Assembly (NCBI GenBank): GCA_030692565.1
Contig: JAUYAO010000041.1
Span: 124,001-188,000 of the forward strand
Direction of reading: 5' to 3'
Length of the DNA: 64,000 nucleotides
Source of the DNA: Nitrospira sp.
GTDB taxonomy: Bacteria; Nitrospirota; Nitrospiria; Nitrospirales; Nitrospiraceae
The notes below the pieces were generated by a model. It was not told the origin of the DNA, ran no database searches, and saw nothing but the letters and a program-made list of their open reading frames with translations. A program made the translations under genes and the position numbers. Shown here one piece after another: positions 11,214 to 18,383 of this stretch. Each line of letters opens with the position of its first letter. The first letter of the stretch is position 1.

Positions 11214-11447
11214 TCACCTGGCGTGGCAGCGGAAACAATCCTGCCGTCTGGGGTGGCGATCCCGCAGCGGTTTGGCAGCGCCGGCCTGATGGCAGGTGAC
11301 GCAACCTTTCTCAACCGTGACAGCCTGATGAGCTTCGTTCTTAGGAACAACCGGGTTGCGATCTTTGGGGGTCGGCAGCAACGACACGCCCACGACAACC
11401 GCGACGGCGAAGAGAACGAACCACCAATCGACTTTTCGCAACTTCAT
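11214..11447 (-). CDS. Small membrane-anchored dihaem c-type cytochrome
   Basis: A 77-residue protein with one N-terminal transmembrane helix (about 8-25) and two CxxCH haem-attachment motifs, CVTCH (49-53) and CFRCH (71-75). His40 and His65 could be distal ligands. Its start overlaps the stop of the upstream FAD/Fe-S oxidase by 4 bases (ATGA, 11444-11447), so the two are translationally coupled. The natural inference is that it passes electrons from the oxidase to the membrane chain. It is much smaller than NapC/NrfH proteins. Confidence 0.8.
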   Translation of the reverse strand: MKLRKVDWWFVLFAVAVVVGVSLLPTPKDRNPVVPKNEAHQAVTVEKGCVTCHQAGAAKPLRDRHPRRQDCFRCHAR

Positions 11448-14290
11448 GAATGGGGTATTCCTTTGTTCCGCTCCGCTGCCTCATAGGCCTCGTTCAGCAA
11501 CTGCGCCACATGTTTCACCTCAACCCGTTCCCGCAATCCATTCTTGAGCTGGATCATACAGGCGGGGCAACTGGTCGCCACGACTTCCGCCCCGACCTGT
11601 TCGACGGCCCTGGTTTTGCGCTCCAGGATTTTTTGCGAGGTGTCGTAATCCTTCACGATGAACGTCCCCGCTCCCCCGGCGCAGCGGTCGGCATCGGGCA
11701 TCTCGACATAGTTAAGACCTGGCAACGACGCCAGAATCTTGCGCGGTTCTTTCGTCACCCCGGCGGCCCGGAGGTGGCAGGAGGAATGGTACGTGACGCA
11801 TTTGGTGCGCGACGCGGCCTGCGCCATGGGCGGATGGAGCGGGGATCGCGCCACGAATTCGGCGATATGCGCGACCTTCTTCGCCAGATGTTCCGCCTGG
11901 CGCCGCTCGTCGCCGTCGGGGAAGAGCGTAGGATAATCTTTCAGCATCAGCGTGCAGGACGCGCAACCGGTCACGATCGTCTCATAAGACGCAAACGAGG
12001 CGATATTGAACCGAGCCCCCTCGCGAGTCAGCTCTTGATGTCCATAGGTTTGGATCGGCGTCCCGGAACAACGCTGCGGCGGCATGGCCGGCTCGACTCC
12101 ATGCTTCCGCAAGACCCCGATGACGGCGTCTCCGACCCCGTCATCAAAATAATTCGCCGCGCAGCCGTGGAAATACGCGACGCTGCCAGGCGCAGGCTGC
12201 GCGCCAGGCTGAGGGATCAATGCCGCGTGCCGCTCACGCAGTTGTATGGGAGCAATGCGCGGCAACAACAACTCATGAGGCAGCTTGGCTGTCGGCGCGA
12301 GAGCCTTGAGCGCCAGCGCGGCTCCCCACTCCATAATCCGTCGGACAACCGGCCGATCCCACAGGCGTTGAGTGCGTCCCAGAAACTTGAGGAACGGCTC
12401 AAACGACGTTCCTCGTGCCTGCCAGCGAAAAATCCATCCGGTCAGGCGATTGGGATGCTCGGCCCGCTTCTTCAGAATAAGCTCCGACACATCGACGCCG
12501 GCAGGACATGCCGTCCGGCAGGATTTACAATTCACGCAAGCCTCGACCACCCGCTTGGAATTGAGGTAACTGTAGTCCGTTGACGTCACAATCTCGAACC
12601 AGCCGCGTGAGCTCATGTCCTCTGACTGGAAGACGTCATAGACCGGACAGACCGCGTTGCACTTCGCGCAGGTCGCGCAGGACTTCGAGAGCCTGGGGTA
12701 GTCGATATGCTCGGTGAAGGACGCGTCGCTGATCTTGATGCCGGGATTCAGCACGCCGGTGGGGTCAAAACTCTTTTTGACCTGCACAAACAGCCCGTAG
12801 AGCTCCTCGCCGAACATCTTCCTGACGTACTCAGCCCGCACACGGCCGTCGCCGTGTTCTCCGCAGATAGACCCGCTAAAGCGGTCCAATACCGTCGAAT
12901 GAATCTCGCGATAGGCCTGCACCATCTTGTCGAAATCCTGGCGATCGTTGACGTCGAGCAGCGGGACGATATGCGCGTTGCCGTTCCCGATATGACCGAA
13001 AATCGCCACCGGCACCTTCTGTCCGGAAAAATACTCTTCCAGATAGTGGATCAGCTCGCTGATCCGCTCCGCCCGTACGACCACATCATCCACAAAATTG
13101 ATCGGCTTCTTGCGCGGATCGAATCGATAGAGGGTGGGATAGAGGGCTTTGCGCGCCTTCCACAATTGCTCACGCTGCTCAGGATCAAACGCCAGCGTCA
13201 GGTCAGCCGCGAGTCGGAACGGCCGGCAGACGGCTGCCATCTGCTCCGCCCGTTCATGCAGATCTACCGCGAGCGAGTCGGCATCGAGTTCAGCAAGCAA
13301 GGTGGCCGCCGCATCAGAGGGAATCCCATGCTTGGCGCGACCGATCAGGTCGAGCGTGTTGGCGTCCATGACTTCGAGCGCACTGGGCTGAAGGGCCAGC
13401 AACAGCGGGACAGCCGCCCCGACATCCTCCAGATGCCGGAAATGGATCAAGGCCGTGAGCGTCGCTTTCGGTTTCTCGACCAGCCGGAGCGTGGCTTCGC
13501 TTATGACTCCAAGCGTGCCTTCGCTCCCGACCAGAAGCTTCGGCAAATCGAACTGCCCGTGAGCCAACCCGTCAACCAGGCCAAACAAGTTATATCCGCA
13601 GCTATTCTTACTGACCGTCGGGCGCCTGCCGTTGATCAAATCGGCATGAGACTGCGCCAGAACCAGCACGTCCCGCAGGGCCGGGATCGTCGAAAGGAGC
13701 CGTTCCAAGGTCGGATCGTTCAGCGCGTAGGATTTCGCCTCCAGCCACGTTCCCGACTCCAGGCACAACCTGAGTCGATGCACATTGTCCTTCACCGACC
13801 CATAGCGCAGTGTGTGCGGCCCGGATGAATTATTCGCCAACATCCCGCCGAGCTTGCACATGTCGCCGCTGGACGGATCGGGCCCGAACAAGAGCCCCTG
13901 CCGGGCCAGCTGTTTATTCAATTCCGCCAGGACGATGCCCGGTTGCACCCGCGCCCACCGTTCTTCGCGATTGATTTCCAGAATCCGGTTCAACCGCGAC
14001 ACGTCGAGAATGATCCCGCTCCCGACGGCCGACCCGGTGAGATTGGTCCCGGCCGCGCGCGGCGTGAGCGGAATGCCGCGAGACCGGGCATAGCGGAGGG
14101 TCTTCGCGATGTCGTCCTCGGACTCCACCAGCACCACGGCCTGCGGCACCACCCGGTAAATGCTGGCATCGACGGCATAGGCCGTCTTGGTGGGGAAATC
14201 GTCTTTGACTTTCTCGGACCCGAGTTGGGCTCGGAGATCAGCGGCGATCGCTCGCGATCGGTCTGGAAGAATGAGGGTTGGCGCAGTCAT
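11444..14290 (-). CDS. FAD-linked 2-hydroxyacid oxidase fused to a GlcF-like Fe-S module
   Basis: A 948-residue fusion. The N-terminal FAD_binding_4 domain (RAAGTNLTGSAVGSG) and FAD-oxidase C-terminal domain resemble GlcD/D-lactate dehydrogenase. Two 4Fe-4S motifs follow at about residues 533-545 (CATCAKCNAVCPVYD) and 583-597 (CVNCKSCRTACPAGVD). Two CCG-type cysteine domains of the GlcF/HdrB kind complete it. It probably oxidises D-lactate or glycolate and feeds electrons to the coupled dihaem protein. Substrate cannot be told from sequence. Its first 93 codons and leader are duplicated at 15262-15588. Confidence 0.88.
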   Translation of the reverse strand: MTAPTLILPDRSRAIAADLRAQLGSEKVKDDFPTKTAYAVDASIYRVVPQAVVLVESEDDIAKTLRYARSRGIPLTPRAAGTNLTGSAVGSGIILDVSRLNRILEINREERWARVQPGIVLAELNKQLARQGLLFGPDPSSGDMCKLGGMLANNSSGPHTLRYGSVKDNVHRLRLCLESGTWLEAKSYALNDPTLERLLSTIPALRDVLVLAQSHADLINGRRPTVSKNSCGYNLFGLVDGLAHGQFDLPKLLVGSEGTLGVISEATLRLVEKPKATLTALIHFRHLEDVGAAVPLLLALQPSALEVMDANTLDLIGRAKHGIPSDAAATLLAELDADSLAVDLHERAEQMAAVCRPFRLAADLTLAFDPEQREQLWKARKALYPTLYRFDPRKKPINFVDDVVVRAERISELIHYLEEYFSGQKVPVAIFGHIGNGNAHIVPLLDVNDRQDFDKMVQAYREIHSTVLDRFSGSICGEHGDGRVRAEYVRKMFGEELYGLFVQVKKSFDPTGVLNPGIKISDASFTEHIDYPRLSKSCATCAKCNAVCPVYDVFQSEDMSSRGWFEIVTSTDYSYLNSKRVVEACVNCKSCRTACPAGVDVSELILKKRAEHPNRLTGWIFRWQARGTSFEPFLKFLGRTQRLWDRPVVRRIMEWGAALALKALAPTAKLPHELLLPRIAPIQLRERHAALIPQPGAQPAPGSVAYFHGCAANYFDDGVGDAVIGVLRKHGVEPAMPPQRCSGTPIQTYGHQELTREGARFNIASFASYETIVTGCASCTLMLKDYPTLFPDGDERRQAEHLAKKVAHIAEFVARSPLHPPMAQAASRTKCVTYHSSCHLRAAGVTKEPRKILASLPGLNYVEMPDADRCAGGAGTFIVKDYDTSQKILERKTRAVEQVGAEVVATSCPACMIQLKNGLRERVEVKHVAQLLNEAYEAAERNKGIPHS

Positions 14291-14338
14291 AGTTCAAGCG
14301 TGGGGCATTCTAGACGGACAGAGAGAGAGAGAACAAGG
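14012..14338. repeat. Direct repeat, original copy (5' end and leader of the FAD oxidase gene)
   Basis: This block aligns base for base, at a constant offset of 1250, with 15262-15588, without gaps. I count roughly a dozen differences over about 280 aligned bases, i.e. about 96 % identity. The homology covers the first 93 codons and about 48 bases upstream of the start and stops at a GA-rich run (14320-14332). The toxin-antitoxin-like pair lies between the two copies. Confidence 0.9.
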
Positions 14339-14504
14339 GTATGATTATGGGCTCACCGCTTGCCTCCTCACCGTCATGCAACGACTCACCTCTTTTCTCC
14401 AAGCCAGCCTTGCACGTTGCCATTGATCGCTGTAGACTTTCGTTATCTAGTGGGGACAGCGGAGTTGGACCAATTCCCTGCCTAGTAGGATAAATTGATT
14501 CTGC

Positions 14505-14828
14505 ATGACCATAGAAGACATCCGATATCGCATTCTCAGCGGGCATTACCTCATTTCCTTTACGCATACGGAGAAACTGCGCCGTCGAAAAATTTCCCTG
14601 ACAACTATCGAAGACGCGATTCGGAACGGGACCATCATCGAAGACTACCCGAATGATCCCCGAGGTCCTTCATGCCTCATTCATGGCCTCACACAGGAAA
14701 GACGGCCTATTCATGTGGTATGCGGACGAATCGACCGCGAGGAGATATTAATCATTACAGCGTATGAACCGAGCCTCGAAGAATGGGAACCCGACTGGCG
14801 AACGAGAAGGAAAGGCGGTGCACAATGA
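14505..14828 (+). CDS. DUF4258-type protein, putative toxin of a YgiT-linked pair
   Basis: A 107-residue protein resembling the DUF4258 family: MTIEDIRYRI start, SFTHTEKLRRRKIS, then a beta-rich core (IHVVCGRIDREEILIITAYEP) ending EWEPDWRTRRK. Members are commonly encoded directly upstream of a YgiT/MqsA-type zinc-finger protein, as here, and are suspected RNase-like toxins related to the RelE/MqsR fold. The stop overlaps the start of the next gene by 4 bases. An AT-rich stretch with GATAAA (14489-14494) just upstream may hold its promoter. Toxicity is an inference from context. Confidence 0.8.
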   Translation: MTIEDIRYRILSGHYLISFTHTEKLRRRKISLTTIEDAIRNGTIIEDYPNDPRGPSCLIHGLTQERRPIHVVCGRIDREEILIITAYEPSLEEWEPDWRTRRKGGAQ

Positions 14829-15061
14829 CCACATCCTGCTATTTCTGCAAAGGAACCGTCGTGCAACAACCCACCACTGTAGACTTCTGGTGGGGAGACG
14901 ATCTCAAGATTATTGAAAACGTCCCAGCAGGAGTGTGCACGCAATGCGGGGAACGATACTTCGACGCCCCCGTCTACAAACAGATGGAACGCCTCACGAA
15001 GGGAACAAGCACAACGATCCGGCAATTATCCGTAGACGTCGTCCGATACTCCGCCGCGTAA
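14825..15061 (+). CDS. YgiT-type zinc-finger protein, putative antitoxin
   Basis: A 78-residue protein with two CxxC pairs (CYFC near residue 5 and CTQC near residue 39), the zinc ribbon of the YgiT/MqsA N-terminal domain. It lacks the C-terminal helix-turn-helix of full MqsA, as is common for DUF4258-linked partners. ATG 14825 overlaps the upstream TGA (ATGA). It is expected to neutralise the DUF4258 protein. An in-frame start further upstream at 14783 lies inside the toxin gene and is rejected. Confidence 0.82.
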   Translation: MTTSCYFCKGTVVQQPTTVDFWWGDDLKIIENVPAGVCTQCGERYFDAPVYKQMERLTKGTSTTIRQLSVDVVRYSAA

Positions 15062-15261: not shown

Positions 15262-15588
15262 GTTCCCGTTCCCGATCGCCGACCCGGTGAGATTGGTCCC
15301 GGCGGCGCGCGGCGTAAGGGGAATACCGCGAGACCGGGCATAGCGGATGGTCTTCGCGATGTCGTCCTCGGACTCCACCAGCACCACCGCCTGCGGCACC
15401 ATCCGATAAATACTGGCATCGACGGCATAGGCCGTCTTGGTGGGGAAATCGTCTTTGACTTTCTCGGACCCGAGTTGGGCCCGGAGATCAGCCGCGATCG
15501 CTCGCGATCGGTCTGGAAGAATGAGGGTTGGCGCAGTCATAGTTCAAGCGTGGGGCATTCTAGACGGACTGTGCGGGAGAGAACAAGC
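15262..15588 (-). pseudogene. Truncated duplicate of the FAD oxidase 5' end
   Basis: Reading on the minus strand from ATG 15540 gives the same N-terminus as the intact oxidase for about 92 residues, with a few substitutions. It then runs out of homology at the SAIGNGND segment and hits a stop. The leader is duplicated as well (to 15588). It is not a functional oxidase but may still carry the oxidase promoter. It was probably formed by duplication when the intervening toxin-antitoxin-like segment arrived. Confidence 0.88.
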
Positions 15589-16185: not shown

Positions 16186-16238
16186 GGGACAAAGAGATGG
16201 GGTCGGGACAAAGAGATGGGGGACAAAGAGATGGGGTC
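16186..16238. repeat. Short tandem repeat before the transposase remnant
   Basis: Three head-to-tail units beginning GGGACAAAGAGATGG lie at 16186, 16205 and 16220; units one and three continue GGTC. The last unit runs directly into the leader of the transposase remnant. Confidence 0.8.
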
Positions 16239-16243
16239 GTTGC

Positions 16244-16272
16244 TTGACTTTGCACTGCCACCCTCCTACCCT
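16244..16272 (+). promoter_or_regulatory. Promoter-like leader of the RAYT remnant
   Basis: TTGACT (16244-16249), 17-base spacer, TACCCT (16267-16272), eight bases before the remnant's ATG at 16281. The same arrangement recurs at 17298-17326, and a poorer copy lies near 16617-16645. Conservation between copies rather than fit to consensus is the main support. Confidence 0.4.
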
Positions 16273-16280
16273 CCCGCCTC

Positions 16281-16620
16281 ATGGCCCGCCAACTGCGATT
16301 GGAATATCCCGGCGCCTTACCACCTGACCGCCCGCGGCAACGAGCAGCAGCCCGTCTTTCACGATGTCACCGACCGACAGCATTTCCTGAAACTATTTGG
16401 CAGAGAAATTCTCCAGCAGCACTGGCGGTGCTATGCCTATTGACTGATAGGGAATCATTATCATCGGCTCATGGACACACCCGAACCGAATCTGAGCCGC
16501 GGCATGCGGCGGCTGAATGGCAGGGCTATACACAGCGCGCTTCAACTGGCGGCATCAACGCGTCGGCCATCTCTTGCAAGGGCGATTCAAAAGCATCCTG
16601 GTCTAGATCTTGGCCTAGGG
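16281..16620 (+). pseudogene. Decayed REP-associated tyrosine transposase (RAYT, Y1 family)
   Basis: Starting at ATG 16281 (MARQLRLEYPGA) the sequence encodes a RAYT but is broken. There is a small deletion after GA, after which YHLTARGNEQQPVFHDVTD continues in another frame. A TGA stop (16441-16443) stands before LIGNHYHRLMDTPEPNLSRG. A further frameshift follows, then YTQRF-type, GHLLQGRFKSILV text. GNHYH is the family's HUH-like motif. The C-terminal part is missing. RAYTs mobilise REP palindromes; this copy cannot make active enzyme. Confidence 0.85.
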
Positions 16621-16700
16621 TCGTTGCTTGATTTGGCACGACCCTGCTATCCCTCGGCGAGCGCGCTGAAGAGACAGGAGGCGCTGAACCGATGCCGTGC

Positions 16701-16955
16701 CTACCGCTTATAGATCTCTCGTCGGTGTCCCACGCGCAGAATTACAACCTGGCCTCCTTCCAGATCGAAGACGACGCGATAATCACCGATGCGAAATCGG
16801 TAGGAGCCCAATTCCGATTGCTTGAGAGGCTCGGCGTACTTGAGAGGATCGGATTCGTAACGGAGGAGAGTTTTCCCTATGCGCTGCTTTACCTTCAAAT
16901 CAAGCGCATCGATATCCCGGATCGCCCGGTGTGTGTAGACCAACCGGTATTTCAC
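16701..16955 (-). CDS. RelE/ParE-family toxin
   Basis: An 84-residue protein with the RelE/ParE pattern: KYRLVYTHRAIRDIDAL, a basic helix, a central YRFRIGDYRVVFDLEG strand pair and the C-terminal ILRVGHRREIYKR. RelE members cleave ribosome-bound mRNA; ParE members poison gyrase; this one has the RelE-like C-terminus. It starts at GTG 16955, overlapping the antitoxin stop by 4 bases (GTGA). Translational coupling after the antitoxin is the usual arrangement for such modules. Confidence 0.88.
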   Translation of the reverse strand: MKYRLVYTHRAIRDIDALDLKVKQRIGKTLLRYESDPLKYAEPLKQSELGSYRFRIGDYRVVFDLEGGQVVILRVGHRREIYKR

Positions 16956-17152
16956 CGGCCAAAGACCTCGTGGTGGGGCTTTACTTTCCCCGTCTTGAAA
17001 TCTCGTCGCGCCTCCCGAATGCTCTGAAGATACTCCGGAGAGGTCGCGGCAATGAGATCTTCCAAGAACACTCGTCTGACAGACTTCCTCATGCCTTTGA
17101 CCGCTCTGATGATCGTCTCCTGACTGACTTCCATTTTGACGGCAGCCGGCAT
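16952..17152 (-). CDS. Antitoxin of the RelE-type pair
   Basis: A 66-residue protein immediately upstream of the toxin: MPAAVKMEVSQETIIRAVKG, then an amphipathic helix and a basic tail (RRDFKTGKVKPHHEVFGR). Small size, position and coupling mark it as the antitoxin. It resembles short RelB-like or AbrB-less antitoxins seen next to RelE, but no DNA-binding motif is clear. ATG 17152 follows a GAAGGTGAATA tract that can serve as ribosome-binding site. Confidence 0.75.
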   Translation of the reverse strand: MPAAVKMEVSQETIIRAVKGMRKSVRRVFLEDLIAATSPEYLQSIREARRDFKTGKVKPHHEVFGR

Positions 17153-17278
17153 TATTCACCTTCCTTCATTCGGCCCAACAGATAGGCAGATCGCATCACT
17201 AATTCTACGATTCTATTATCGGCGAGGCCTTCGGTAGGGTCAAGCCATCGAGTTGATCGTTGCTCGCATAGCCCCTCG

Positions 17279-17375
17279 GAACGATGGGGATCGTTGCTTG
17301 ACTTTGCACCTCCCTCGCCCTACCCTCCGCGATCATGACGCGCCGGATCCGTCTGAAGCATTGCGGGACAGAAGT
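17279..17375 (+). repeat. Third copy of the RAYT leader with remnant 5' codons
   Basis: This copies the leader of the remnant at 16232-16283: GGGGATCGTTGCTTGACTTT, TTGACT (17298-17303), 17-base spacer, TACCCT (17321-17326), then an ATG (17336) followed by codons for MTRRIRLKHCG. That matches the RAYT start pattern M-A/T-R-x-I/L-R-L-x-x-x-G. It ends 37 bases before the start of the dehydrogenase gene and might supply its promoter. Confidence 0.65.
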
Positions 17376-17411
17376 ATCAGGCCCTGCCGTGAGTCCGTTC
17401 ACCGTCATCCG

Positions 17412-18383
17412 ATGACCCAACCCAAGCTCGTCTACGTCACCCGCATACTCCCTGAGCCGGTGATGACTGCGCTACGACAGCAGTACCGGCTCATTTCTGA
17501 ACCAACAGATCAGCCGCCTTCCTCAGACGAGCAACGCCGCGGCTTTGCCGAAGCCGACGCCGTCATCTGCACGCTGGCCGATCCGATCACCGACGACTTG
17601 CTCGCGGCAGCGCCGCGCCTGAAGATCGTGGCGAACTATGCGGTGGGATACAACAACATCGACGTGGCCGCCGCCACGCGCCGCGGGATCGTGGTGACGA
17701 ATACGCCGGATGTCCTGACGGATGCGACGGCGGATCTCACCTGGGCCCTGATTCTGGCAGTCGCACGACATGTGGTGGAAGGCGACCGATGGGCCCGCTC
17801 CGGGACCTGGCCGGGATGGGCGCCGACTCAAATGCTGGGGACGGATGTCACAGAAAAAACGCTGGGCATCATCGGCATGGGTCGGATCGGGCAGGCTGTC
17901 GCCTTGCGCGCGCAAGGGTTTCGTATGCCGGTGATCTATGCCAGCCGTCGGCCCTGTCCCCCTCCATCCGGTGTCACAACCTGGACTCACCGACCATTGG
18001 AAGAGCTGCTGACGCAGGCCGACTTCGTGTCGGTGCACGTGCCCTTGTCGGAGGCGACGCGCCATCTCATTGGATCGCGCGAGCTGGCCATGATGCAATC
18101 CACCGCCTTTCTGATCAACACGTCCCGCGGACCGGTCGTCGACGAAGCCGCCCTCCTCGTCGCCTTGCGACAAGGGACGATTGCCGGAGCCGGGTTGGAT
18201 GTGTACGAACGCGAACCGGTGATTCTGTCTGGATTGGAACAGCTCTCGAACGTCGTGCTGTTGCCCCATCTTGGATCGGCAACACTGGACGCTCGTTTGA
18301 AGATGGGAATGATCTGCGTGGAAAATATTGCGGCCGTACTTGGAGGCCGGGCTCCGCTGAATCCGGTCATTCGGGGAGTCTAG
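17412..18383 (+). CDS. D-isomer-specific 2-hydroxyacid dehydrogenase (glyoxylate reductase-like)
   Basis: A 323-residue NAD(P)H-dependent enzyme reducing a 2-oxoacid such as glyoxylate. The Rossmann motif GMGRIG is at about residue 156. The catalytic Arg lies in NTSRGPVV (about 238), the Glu in YEREP (about 265) and the His in PHLG (about 285). The VGYNNIDV segment is typical of the GyaR/GhrB group. The frame is open further upstream, but ATG 17412 fits the family N-terminus. Together with the nearby 2-hydroxyacid oxidase it hints at glycolate/glyoxylate metabolism, an inference. Its 3' end overlaps the convergent TPR gene by 3 bases. Confidence 0.9.
   Translation: MTQPKLVYVTRILPEPVMTALRQQYRLISEPTDQPPSSDEQRRGFAEADAVICTLADPITDDLLAAAPRLKIVANYAVGYNNIDVAAATRRGIVVTNTPDVLTDATADLTWALILAVARHVVEGDRWARSGTWPGWAPTQMLGTDVTEKTLGIIGMGRIGQAVALRAQGFRMPVIYASRRPCPPPSGVTTWTHRPLEELLTQADFVSVHVPLSEATRHLIGSRELAMMQSTAFLINTSRGPVVDEAALLVALRQGTIAGAGLDVYEREPVILSGLEQLSNVVLLPHLGSATLDARLKMGMICVENIAAVLGGRAPLNPVIRGV

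What the first reader, a model, noticed from the sequence alone, without database searches (positions are those of the whole stretch)
16186..17375. RAYT remnant with three dispersed copies of its promoter-like leader
The leader GGGGTCGTTGCTTGACTTTG recurs at 16232, about 16617 and 17286. In the first and third copies TTGACT is exactly 17 bases from TACCCT and is followed by an ATG with RAYT-like first codons. The third copy lies just before the dehydrogenase gene and may have become its promoter.
Basis: seen in the sequence. Interest (0 to 1): 0.5.

Follow-up and report, generated by a model that had tools for sequence, protein, structure and literature searches.

The report
Jumping-gene end with built-in promoter
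The repeated leader is the end of a small bacterial jumping gene that seems to carry its own start signal for transcription, and one broken copy now sits where a neighbouring enzyme gene's own start signal is found in relatives.

Summary
The leader occurs at 16233 (0 mismatches), 16617 (3) and 17287 (1); chance gives 0.01. It is the ~23-nt terminal inverted repeat (TIR) of a ~1 kb RAYT-like transposon of the published TIRYT kind; its 16-nt core has 27 places in this genome at <=2 mismatches.

The promoter reading is well supported for the transposase within the window's phylum. TA...T lies exactly 17 nt after TTGAC[N] in 16 of 25 transposase-bearing ends from own and phylum genomes and 4 of 14 from a wider contig scan, against 3 of 288 other TIR-like sites. 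Copy 3 keeps this promoter but only a few transposase codons. It stands where 25 of 28 other orthologue loci have a TANAAT box. One relative (G002) shares copy 3, so co-option by the dehydrogenase is plausible (about 0.5), not proven.

The same scar meets a fixed score at 8 of 27 own TIR copies and 14 of 109 in a contig scan, against 0.2% and 0.9% of random positions. Later sets were weaker or empty. It may record transposase action. I found no description in the papers searched.

The parts
16186..16232 (+). Stutter: three serial copies of the flank GGGACAAAGAGAT followed by 6, 2 and finally all of the TIR bases (units 16186-16204, 16205-16219, 16220-16232 + TIR)
   Evidence: read from sequence; score 20, 0 of 300 shuffles; family D3
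16233..16255 (+). Copy 1 of the terminal inverted repeat (left end of the RAYT/TIRYT element)
   Evidence: aligned to the left end of intact elements
16244..16272 (+). Transposase promoter candidate: TTGACT - 17 nt - TACCCT
   Evidence: -10 signature across transposase-bearing ends
16281..16606 (+). Transposase (RAYT) remnant, 5' third only, with frameshifts and a premature stop
   Evidence: 88% identity over 384 alignment columns (16225-16606) to the G069 element; no Pfam hit at E<=0.01 for three of its frames
16617..16639 (+). Copy 2 of the TIR, decayed, without a -10 box
   Evidence: the aligned place in G002 holds a decayed GGGGTCGTTG
17287..17309 (+). Copy 3 of the TIR
   Evidence: shared with G002
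17298..17326 (+). Promoter candidate for the dehydrogenase: TTGACT - 17 nt - TACCCT, 2 of 29 bases changed in G002
17335..17415 (+). 26-codon open frame starting with the transposase-like codons; its TGA overlaps the dehydrogenase ATG (ATGA), with the same length and frame in G002
17412..18383 (+). D-isomer-specific 2-hydroxyacid dehydrogenase (best NCBIfam match glyoxylate reductase, below its cut-off), open frame intact

Best explanation
The leader is the ~23-nt terminal inverted repeat of a compact RAYT-like (TIRYT) transposon. Its left end doubles as the transposase promoter: TTGACT lies inside the repeat, a TANNNT box follows exactly 17 nt later, and the start codon is usually 8 nt after that, which predicts a leaderless message. 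The window holds three remnants. Copy 1 is a left end with a third of a broken transposase, copy 2 a bare decayed end, and copy 3 a left end reduced to promoter plus a few codons. Copy 3 lies between a toxin-antitoxin-like pair and the dehydrogenase, where relatives have a TANAAT box, and probably supplies transcription now through a 26-codon frame that overlaps the dehydrogenase start codon. Shown: the repeat, its transposon context, the 17-nt rule, and the absence of the box seen in relatives. Inferred: leaderless start, use of copy 3 as promoter, coupling. My estimate for co-option alone is 0.5.
For: 27 genome places vs 2 for the reversed pattern. Of 27 TIR copies in the own-genome loci, 14 have an inverted partner (up to 6 mismatches) within 1.3 kb, spanning 73 to 1114 nt; the 989 and 994 nt spans enclose a transposase gene. 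Nine elements were read out: 8 give 312-314 aa proteins with NHYH and Y[VI].LNP, 1 (L007) is frameshifted; all four given to Pfam match Y1_Tnp. TA...T at spacer 17 in 20 of 39 transposase-bearing ends and in 0-2 at each other spacer from 10 to 25; 3 of 288 sites without a transposase start (Fisher 2e-18). By source: 16 of 25 own or phylum loci, 4 of 14 contig-scan loci vs 1 of 174 other scan sites (Fisher 9e-5). In G068 and G023 the start codons of the two divergent genes are 111 nt apart, with no TIR in the stretch. TANAAT box 7-29 nt before the dehydrogenase start in 25 of 28 orthologue loci other than window and G002, 0 of those 2. Copy 3 and the 26-codon ATGA-overlapping frame are shared with G002.
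Against: The -10 box TACCCT matches only 3 of 6 consensus bases and the consensus scan does not report it. The 17-nt box is mainly a trait of the window's phylum; outside it rests on few cases, and related sequences make the P values too small. Core conservation against G002 is borderline and the amino acids of the 26-codon frame are not conserved. A supposed remnant of the native promoter upstream of copy 3 was not significant (133 and 875 of 1000 shuffles as good). No transcription data.
Confidence: 0.75

Rival explanations
1. Copy 3 is only a decaying transposon end. The dehydrogenase is transcribed from another, unrecognised promoter, or from read-through.
For: The -10 box is weak by consensus. 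Conservation of 29 nt in one relative is borderline. Two of the other 28 orthologue loci (L054, L062) also lack a TANAAT box, so its absence is not unique; a third, L067, is cut short.
Against: Position, orientation and the 17-nt spacing fit; the same arrangement is kept in G002 while 3 of the 12 outer TIR bases differ; the scan reports no + strand promoter between 16150 and 17450 at all.
Confidence: 0.4
2. The three copies are chance or a free-standing promoter family, unrelated to a transposon.
For: 13 of 27 own copies have no partner within 1.3 kb.
Against: Inverted pairs around transposase genes, 989 and 994 nt long. In 7 of 8 full-length elements the transposase stop codon lies just inside a matched right repeat. 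Chance expectation 0.01.
Confidence: 0.03
3. The stutter is ordinary replication slippage or an assembly artefact, not a trace of transposase action.
For: Short tandem repeats arise everywhere (0.2-0.9% of random positions reach the score). Same-genus matches to the leader show none at score >=12 (0 of 70), viral matches none (0 of 24) and a further batch of contigs 1 of 49. Many of the records are metagenome assemblies. In 13 of 28 cases unmatched bases separate the units.
Against: It sits at the outer and not the inner TIR edge (14 of 109 vs 1 of 107; 8 of 27 vs 0 of 27). It recurs in records from several phyla, an isolate (Alkalimonas, L204) among them. Of 28 cases, 14 end 7-9 nt and 10 end 1-4 nt inside the TIR.
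Confidence: 0.35

Closest known systems
TIRYT / TIRtron (RAYT-like tyrosine transposase flanked by GGGGWSAS terminal inverted repeats; Di Nocera 2013, PMC3733652, passages read)
   Same: Long inverted repeats beginning GGGGTCA, RAYT-like Y1 transposase, single and dimeric repeat copies in the genome, repeats overlapping gene ends in some cases
   Different: The passages I saw describe neither a 17-nt promoter rule in the left end nor stuttered outer edges; this genome's repeat GGGGTCAT fits GGGGWSAS at 7 of 8 positions
TnpA-Y1 subclass 2.1 (Quentin 2018, PMC6006769, section 12 and first part of section 15 read)
   Same: NH[YF]H and Y..LNP motifs, C-terminal tail, no REP hairpins; the authors suggest 2.1 corresponds to TIRYT
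   Different: Median length 238 aa there, 313 aa here; the C-terminal HTH profiles were not recovered by Pfam here. Subclass 2.3 (median 325 aa, NHYH, YVDLNP) is an alternative that I did not test
REPIN tandem clusters (Bertels and Rainey 2011, PMC3116915, passages read)
   Same: Tandem reiteration of the mobile repeat together with flanking host DNA, units usually separated by a short non-repeated stretch
   Different: There the whole REPIN is repeated; here mostly only the outer 1-9 nt of the TIR plus 3-13 nt of flank
REP cleavage by TnpAREP (PMC8266576, passages read)
   Same: Related Y1 enzyme that cuts single-stranded DNA beside its repeat and rejoins strands
   Different: Its sites are C|T (or C|A) chosen through GTAG; no TIR with GGGGTCA was tested in the passages seen
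Promoter capture from insertion sequences (general knowledge, recalled)
   Same: A mobile element end supplies the promoter of a neighbouring gene
   Different: Here the element is almost gone and the left-over frame overlaps the host gene start

Membership tests
TIRYT / RAYT-like transposon | Y1 tyrosine transposase with HUH motif and catalytic Tyr | tested here: met
   Intact copies: NHYH and Y[VI].LNP in 8 of 8 full-length proteins; PF01797 E 2e-10 to 6e-9 in 4 of 4 tested; NCBIfam REP-associated tyrosine transposase 79.7 and 78.4 bits, under the cut-off of 80. The window copy itself is a fragment.
TIRYT / RAYT-like transposon | Long terminal inverted repeats flanking the gene | tested here: met
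   Both ends of intact elements
TIRYT / RAYT-like transposon | TIR motif GGGGWSAS | tested here: inconclusive
   Own-genome consensus GGGGTCAT matches 7 of 8; phylum relatives such as G290 and G019 have GGGGTCAG, 8 of 8; the window copies GGGGTCGT, AGGGTCGT and GGGATCGT have two or three departures
TIRYT / RAYT-like transposon | Single and inverted-pair repeat copies dispersed in the genome | tested here: met
   27 places; 14 of 27 with an inverted partner, spans 73-1114 nt
TIRYT / RAYT-like transposon | Actual mobility or cleavage of the TIR by the transposase | not testable with these tools
   No biochemistry; no clean two-sided empty site found for L006, L010 or L009
REP/REPIN with RAYT (GTAG type) | GTAG or GTGG at the foot of a stable hairpin | tested here: not met
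   No GTAG or GTGG in the repeat consensus. Two copies fold only to a 4-bp GTCA/TGAC hairpin, -2.0 and -0.8 kcal/mol, no better than shuffles (37 and 123 of 200 as good)
Sigma-70 type promoter | -35 and -10 hexamers 16-18 nt apart, close to consensus | tested here: inconclusive
   TTGACT (5 of 6), 17 nt, TACCCT (3 of 6); position-specific signal across elements but below the consensus scan threshold

The most novel reading that the evidence does not exclude
The stuttered outer edge is a molecular scar of the RAYT/TIRYT transposase. It nicks the repeat at fixed points (about +1 to +4 and +8, the end of the conserved octamer), and repeated copying from one fixed point a few bases out in the flank lays down serial units. 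Reading these scars in public genomes would give the cleavage positions of a transposase family whose spread is poorly understood.
Probability: 0.28. Interest if true: 0.62.

Novelty: new variant of a known kind. Interest (0 to 1): 0.4.

Why it matters
How RAYT-type elements spread is described as poorly understood (start of the abstract of PMC8266576, listing). A left end that is both recognition repeat and promoter, and a right end that also encodes the last codons and stop of the transposase, would explain why the repeat is so conserved. The stutter, if confirmed, makes the cleavage geometry testable from sequence. Copy 3 is a case where a mobile element's promoter may have replaced a gene's own.

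Tried and rejected
Empty sites with both flanks: for L006 five of 12 relatives matched the left flank only; L010 and L009 gave scattered partial matches. I saw no uninserted site with both flanks, so the duplicated flank could not be compared with an ancestor. Native promoter remnant upstream of copy 3: rejected after shuffling. Consensus promoter scan: does not report copies 1 and 3. Target-site duplication abutting the element: 0 nt in 5 of 5 paired elements checked (L004, L006, L007, L009, L010). Stutter as a trait of all members: same-genus matches to the leader gave 0 of 70 at score >=12, though 3 of 70 beat at least 99% of shuffles (the 1 of 72 is a set that includes L043, which is own genome). 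One same-genus element with the GTT variant of the repeat (G019, L299) does score 18. Viral matches gave 0 of 24 and the second batch of genome contigs 1 of 49. The search pattern has only 15 fixed bases, so an unknown share of these matches are not real TIRs; yet restricting to sites with an inverted partner did not raise the rate (9 of 114 vs 9 of 87 without). Promoter box as a trait of all phyla: only 4 of 14 ends in the contig scan. Papers: general RAYT search (30 listed); TIRYT in 2 held papers; RAYT with tandem duplication, nothing relevant among the 15 of 2,875 shown; four TIR-like strings in none; TnpAREP cleavage, 12 of 69 shown. Main texts were read in part only, and no supplementary files.

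Full report
What is there. The leader occurs three times on the + strand, at 16233 (exact), 16617 (3 mismatches) and 17287 (1 mismatch), against 0.01 expected. In copies 1 and 3 TTGACT is exactly 17 nt from TACCCT, and an ATG follows 8 nt later. Copy 2 has no such box.

Identity. The window's own genome has 27 places within 2 mismatches of the 16-nt core TCGTTGCTTGACTTTG, against 2 for the pattern read backwards. Of 79 genomes of the genus (own included), 30 have at least one match to the 22-nt repeat, and the reversed control has none in any. Reading around the own places (window and loci L001-L013) gives 27 repeat copies at <=3 mismatches (the number equals that by coincidence). The leader is the outer end of an inverted repeat, GGGGTC[AG]TTGCTTGACTTTGCAC: 14 of these 27 have an inverted partner within 1.3 kb, spanning 73 to 1114 nt, of which the 222 and 1114 nt spans may be incidental. 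Two spans, 989 and 994 nt, hold a transposase gene, one intact (313 aa, L009) and one frameshifted (137 aa, L007). Intact proteins carry NHYH and Y[VI].LNP and match Y1_Tnp; two fall less than two bits below the NCBIfam cut-off for REP-associated tyrosine transposase. Copy 1 is the left end of such an element: 16225-16606 matches the first third of the G069 element at 88%.

Known kind. These are features of TIRYT elements, many of whose repeats share GGGGWSAS (PMC3733652, passages) and which a later survey tentatively equates with subclass 2.1 (PMC6006769, parts of two sections). The own-genome repeat GGGGTCAT fits that motif at 7 of 8 positions. The right repeat also encodes the end of the transposase: all 8 full-length proteins read out end in [CY][KN][VI]K[QN], and in 7 of the 8 the stop codon is followed by four bases to the outer edge of a matched right repeat (positions); for the eighth (L200) I did not find the right repeat.

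Promoter. I collected TIR-like sites from all loci held and divided them by whether a transposase-like start region follows, without regard to a -10 box. TA...T lies at spacer 17 in 20 of 39 transposase-bearing ends and in 0-2 of 39 at every other spacer from 10 to 25; among 288 sites without such a start it is 3 at spacer 17. The ATG is 8 nt after the box in 16 of the 20 and 6 or 9 nt after it in the rest (one of the 20 starts with CTG). The split by source matters: 16 of 25 ends from own and phylum genomes, among them the window's copies 1 and 3, and 4 of 14 from the contig scan, against 1 of 174 other sites in that scan (Fisher 9e-5). The signal is thus strong in the window's phylum and thinner outside. 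The overall Fisher value of 2e-18 overstates independence. This is the pattern expected of a sigma-70-like promoter giving a leaderless message; the leaderless start is inferred.

Copy 3 and the dehydrogenase. The dehydrogenase finds matches in 58 of 59 genomes, own included; loci of the best 30 were fetched. In G068 and G023 the start codons of the divergent oxidoreductase and dehydrogenase genes are 111 nt apart and no repeat lies there. A TA[ACG]AAT box stands 7-29 nt before the dehydrogenase start in 25 of 28 loci other than the window and G002; L054 and L062 lack it and L067 is cut short. The window and G002 lack it and have copy 3 instead. A search with 17270-17440 gives matches in 7 of 79 genus genomes; only the own locus and the G002 locus cover more than 65 of the 171 bases, the other hits being short repeat-sized matches. 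Between window and G002, 2 of 29 bases differ from -35 to -10, against 22 of 97 in the outer TIR bases, the 8 nt before ATG and the 26-codon frame (binomial 0.026, Fisher 0.064). The nucleotide match of copy 3 to an intact element ends at 17344; beyond that only the amino acids M.R..RL resemble the transposase. The frame ends in ATGA over the dehydrogenase start in both genomes, but its amino acids are not conserved. I therefore rate co-option at about 0.5. A supposed remnant of the native promoter did not survive shuffling, and the consensus scan does not report the promoter.

Stutter. The finding's region begins with three serial copies of GGGACAAAGAGAT followed by 6, 2 and finally all TIR bases (16186-16232). 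The same pattern, with a different flank each time, stands at other own TIRs: 9 of 27 beat all 300 shuffles. With one fixed score (>=12) the rates are: own genome, outer edge 8 of 27, inner edge 0 of 27, random positions 5 of 2479, non-TIR GGGG 8 of 772; first 80 loci of the contig scan, outer 14 of 109, inner 1 of 107, random 95 of 10263, GGGG 21 of 3004. In three later sets the outer edge gives 1 of 49 (contigs L226-L264), 0 of 24 (viral) and 3 of 43 (phylum), together 4 of 116 against 38 of 10326 random positions (Fisher 0.001). The GGGG control there was 16 of 1302, 1 of 591 and 0 of 312, so the first of these sets is not clearly above its control. Same-genus matches to the leader gave 0 of 70, while one same-genus element with a variant repeat (G019, L299) scores 18. 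Of 28 cases at score >=8 from the first two sets, 14 units end 7-9 nt, 10 end 1-4 nt, 1 ends 11 nt and 3 end 18-25 nt inside the TIR, with 3-13 nt of exactly matching flank. In 13 of 28 the units abut with 0-1 nt of extra homology, in 13 they are separated by 1-14 unmatched bases (the window's case because a middle unit intervenes), and in 2 the extra homology is 2 or 5 nt. Where several units stand in series (window, L009, L148, L010) they start at nearly the same flank base but end at different TIR bases (read).

How it might work. The element's ends would be processed as single strands by the Y1 transposase, as for IS200/IS605 elements and for TnpAREP on REP substrates (PMC8266576, passages); this was not shown here. 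No target-site duplication abuts the ends in 5 of 5 paired elements, which fits. The stutter could arise if the enzyme nicks a few bases and about 8 bases inside the repeat and the break is refilled repeatedly from one fixed point in the flank. REPIN clusters in Pseudomonas are reported to repeat in tandem with their flanks, usually separated by a short unrepeated stretch (PMC3116915, passages), which is the nearest precedent. Slippage unrelated to the enzyme remains possible, and the uneven rate between sets is against a universal rule.

Verdict. The thing itself is a remnant of a known kind of transposon. The 17-nt promoter in its end and the stuttered edge are the parts that I did not find described in the passages and searches listed.

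Noticed in passing
about 14016-14342 and 15266-15587: The 5' end of the oxidoreductase gene (11444-14290, -) and its upstream region are duplicated; between the copies lie a DUF4258 protein and a YgiT-type zinc finger protein (MqsA-like, weak), 14505-15061, perhaps a toxin-antitoxin pair.
   Followed up: partly
16701-17152 (-): ParE/RelE-like toxin (within 16701-17000) and an overlapping small frame without a family hit above cut-off (16952-17152), lying between TIR copies 2 and 3 and shared with G002 at 90%.
   Followed up: partly
15801 (-): A 5-mismatch TIR-like site, GGGGCCATTGCTCGACGTTGCGT; perhaps a fourth, older end.
   Followed up: no
L009 (own contig C41:106000-114500, about 10 kb left of the window): Several TIR copies within a region whose stretches of roughly 110-145 nt recur several times in G068 C22 and G019 C21; possibly an integron-like cassette array, not tested.
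   Followed up: no
right TIR of intact elements, e.g. L009:6270-6292: The right repeat encodes the last residues and the stop codon of the transposase (CKVKQ and variants; 7 of 8 with a matched right repeat), so the repeat is under coding constraint at one end and perhaps promoter constraint at the other.
   Followed up: partly
L081 (G002) just before 4417, L044 (G069) before 1501, L087 (G002, -) before 1558: Three TIR copies follow the end of what reads as the same small gene (...PIW..Y stop), which suggests a recurring insertion place (read).
   Followed up: no
TIR copies in general: The repeat contains a short GTCA-N5-TGAC inverted word; it folds only weakly in the two copies tested. Its role is unknown.
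   Followed up: partly
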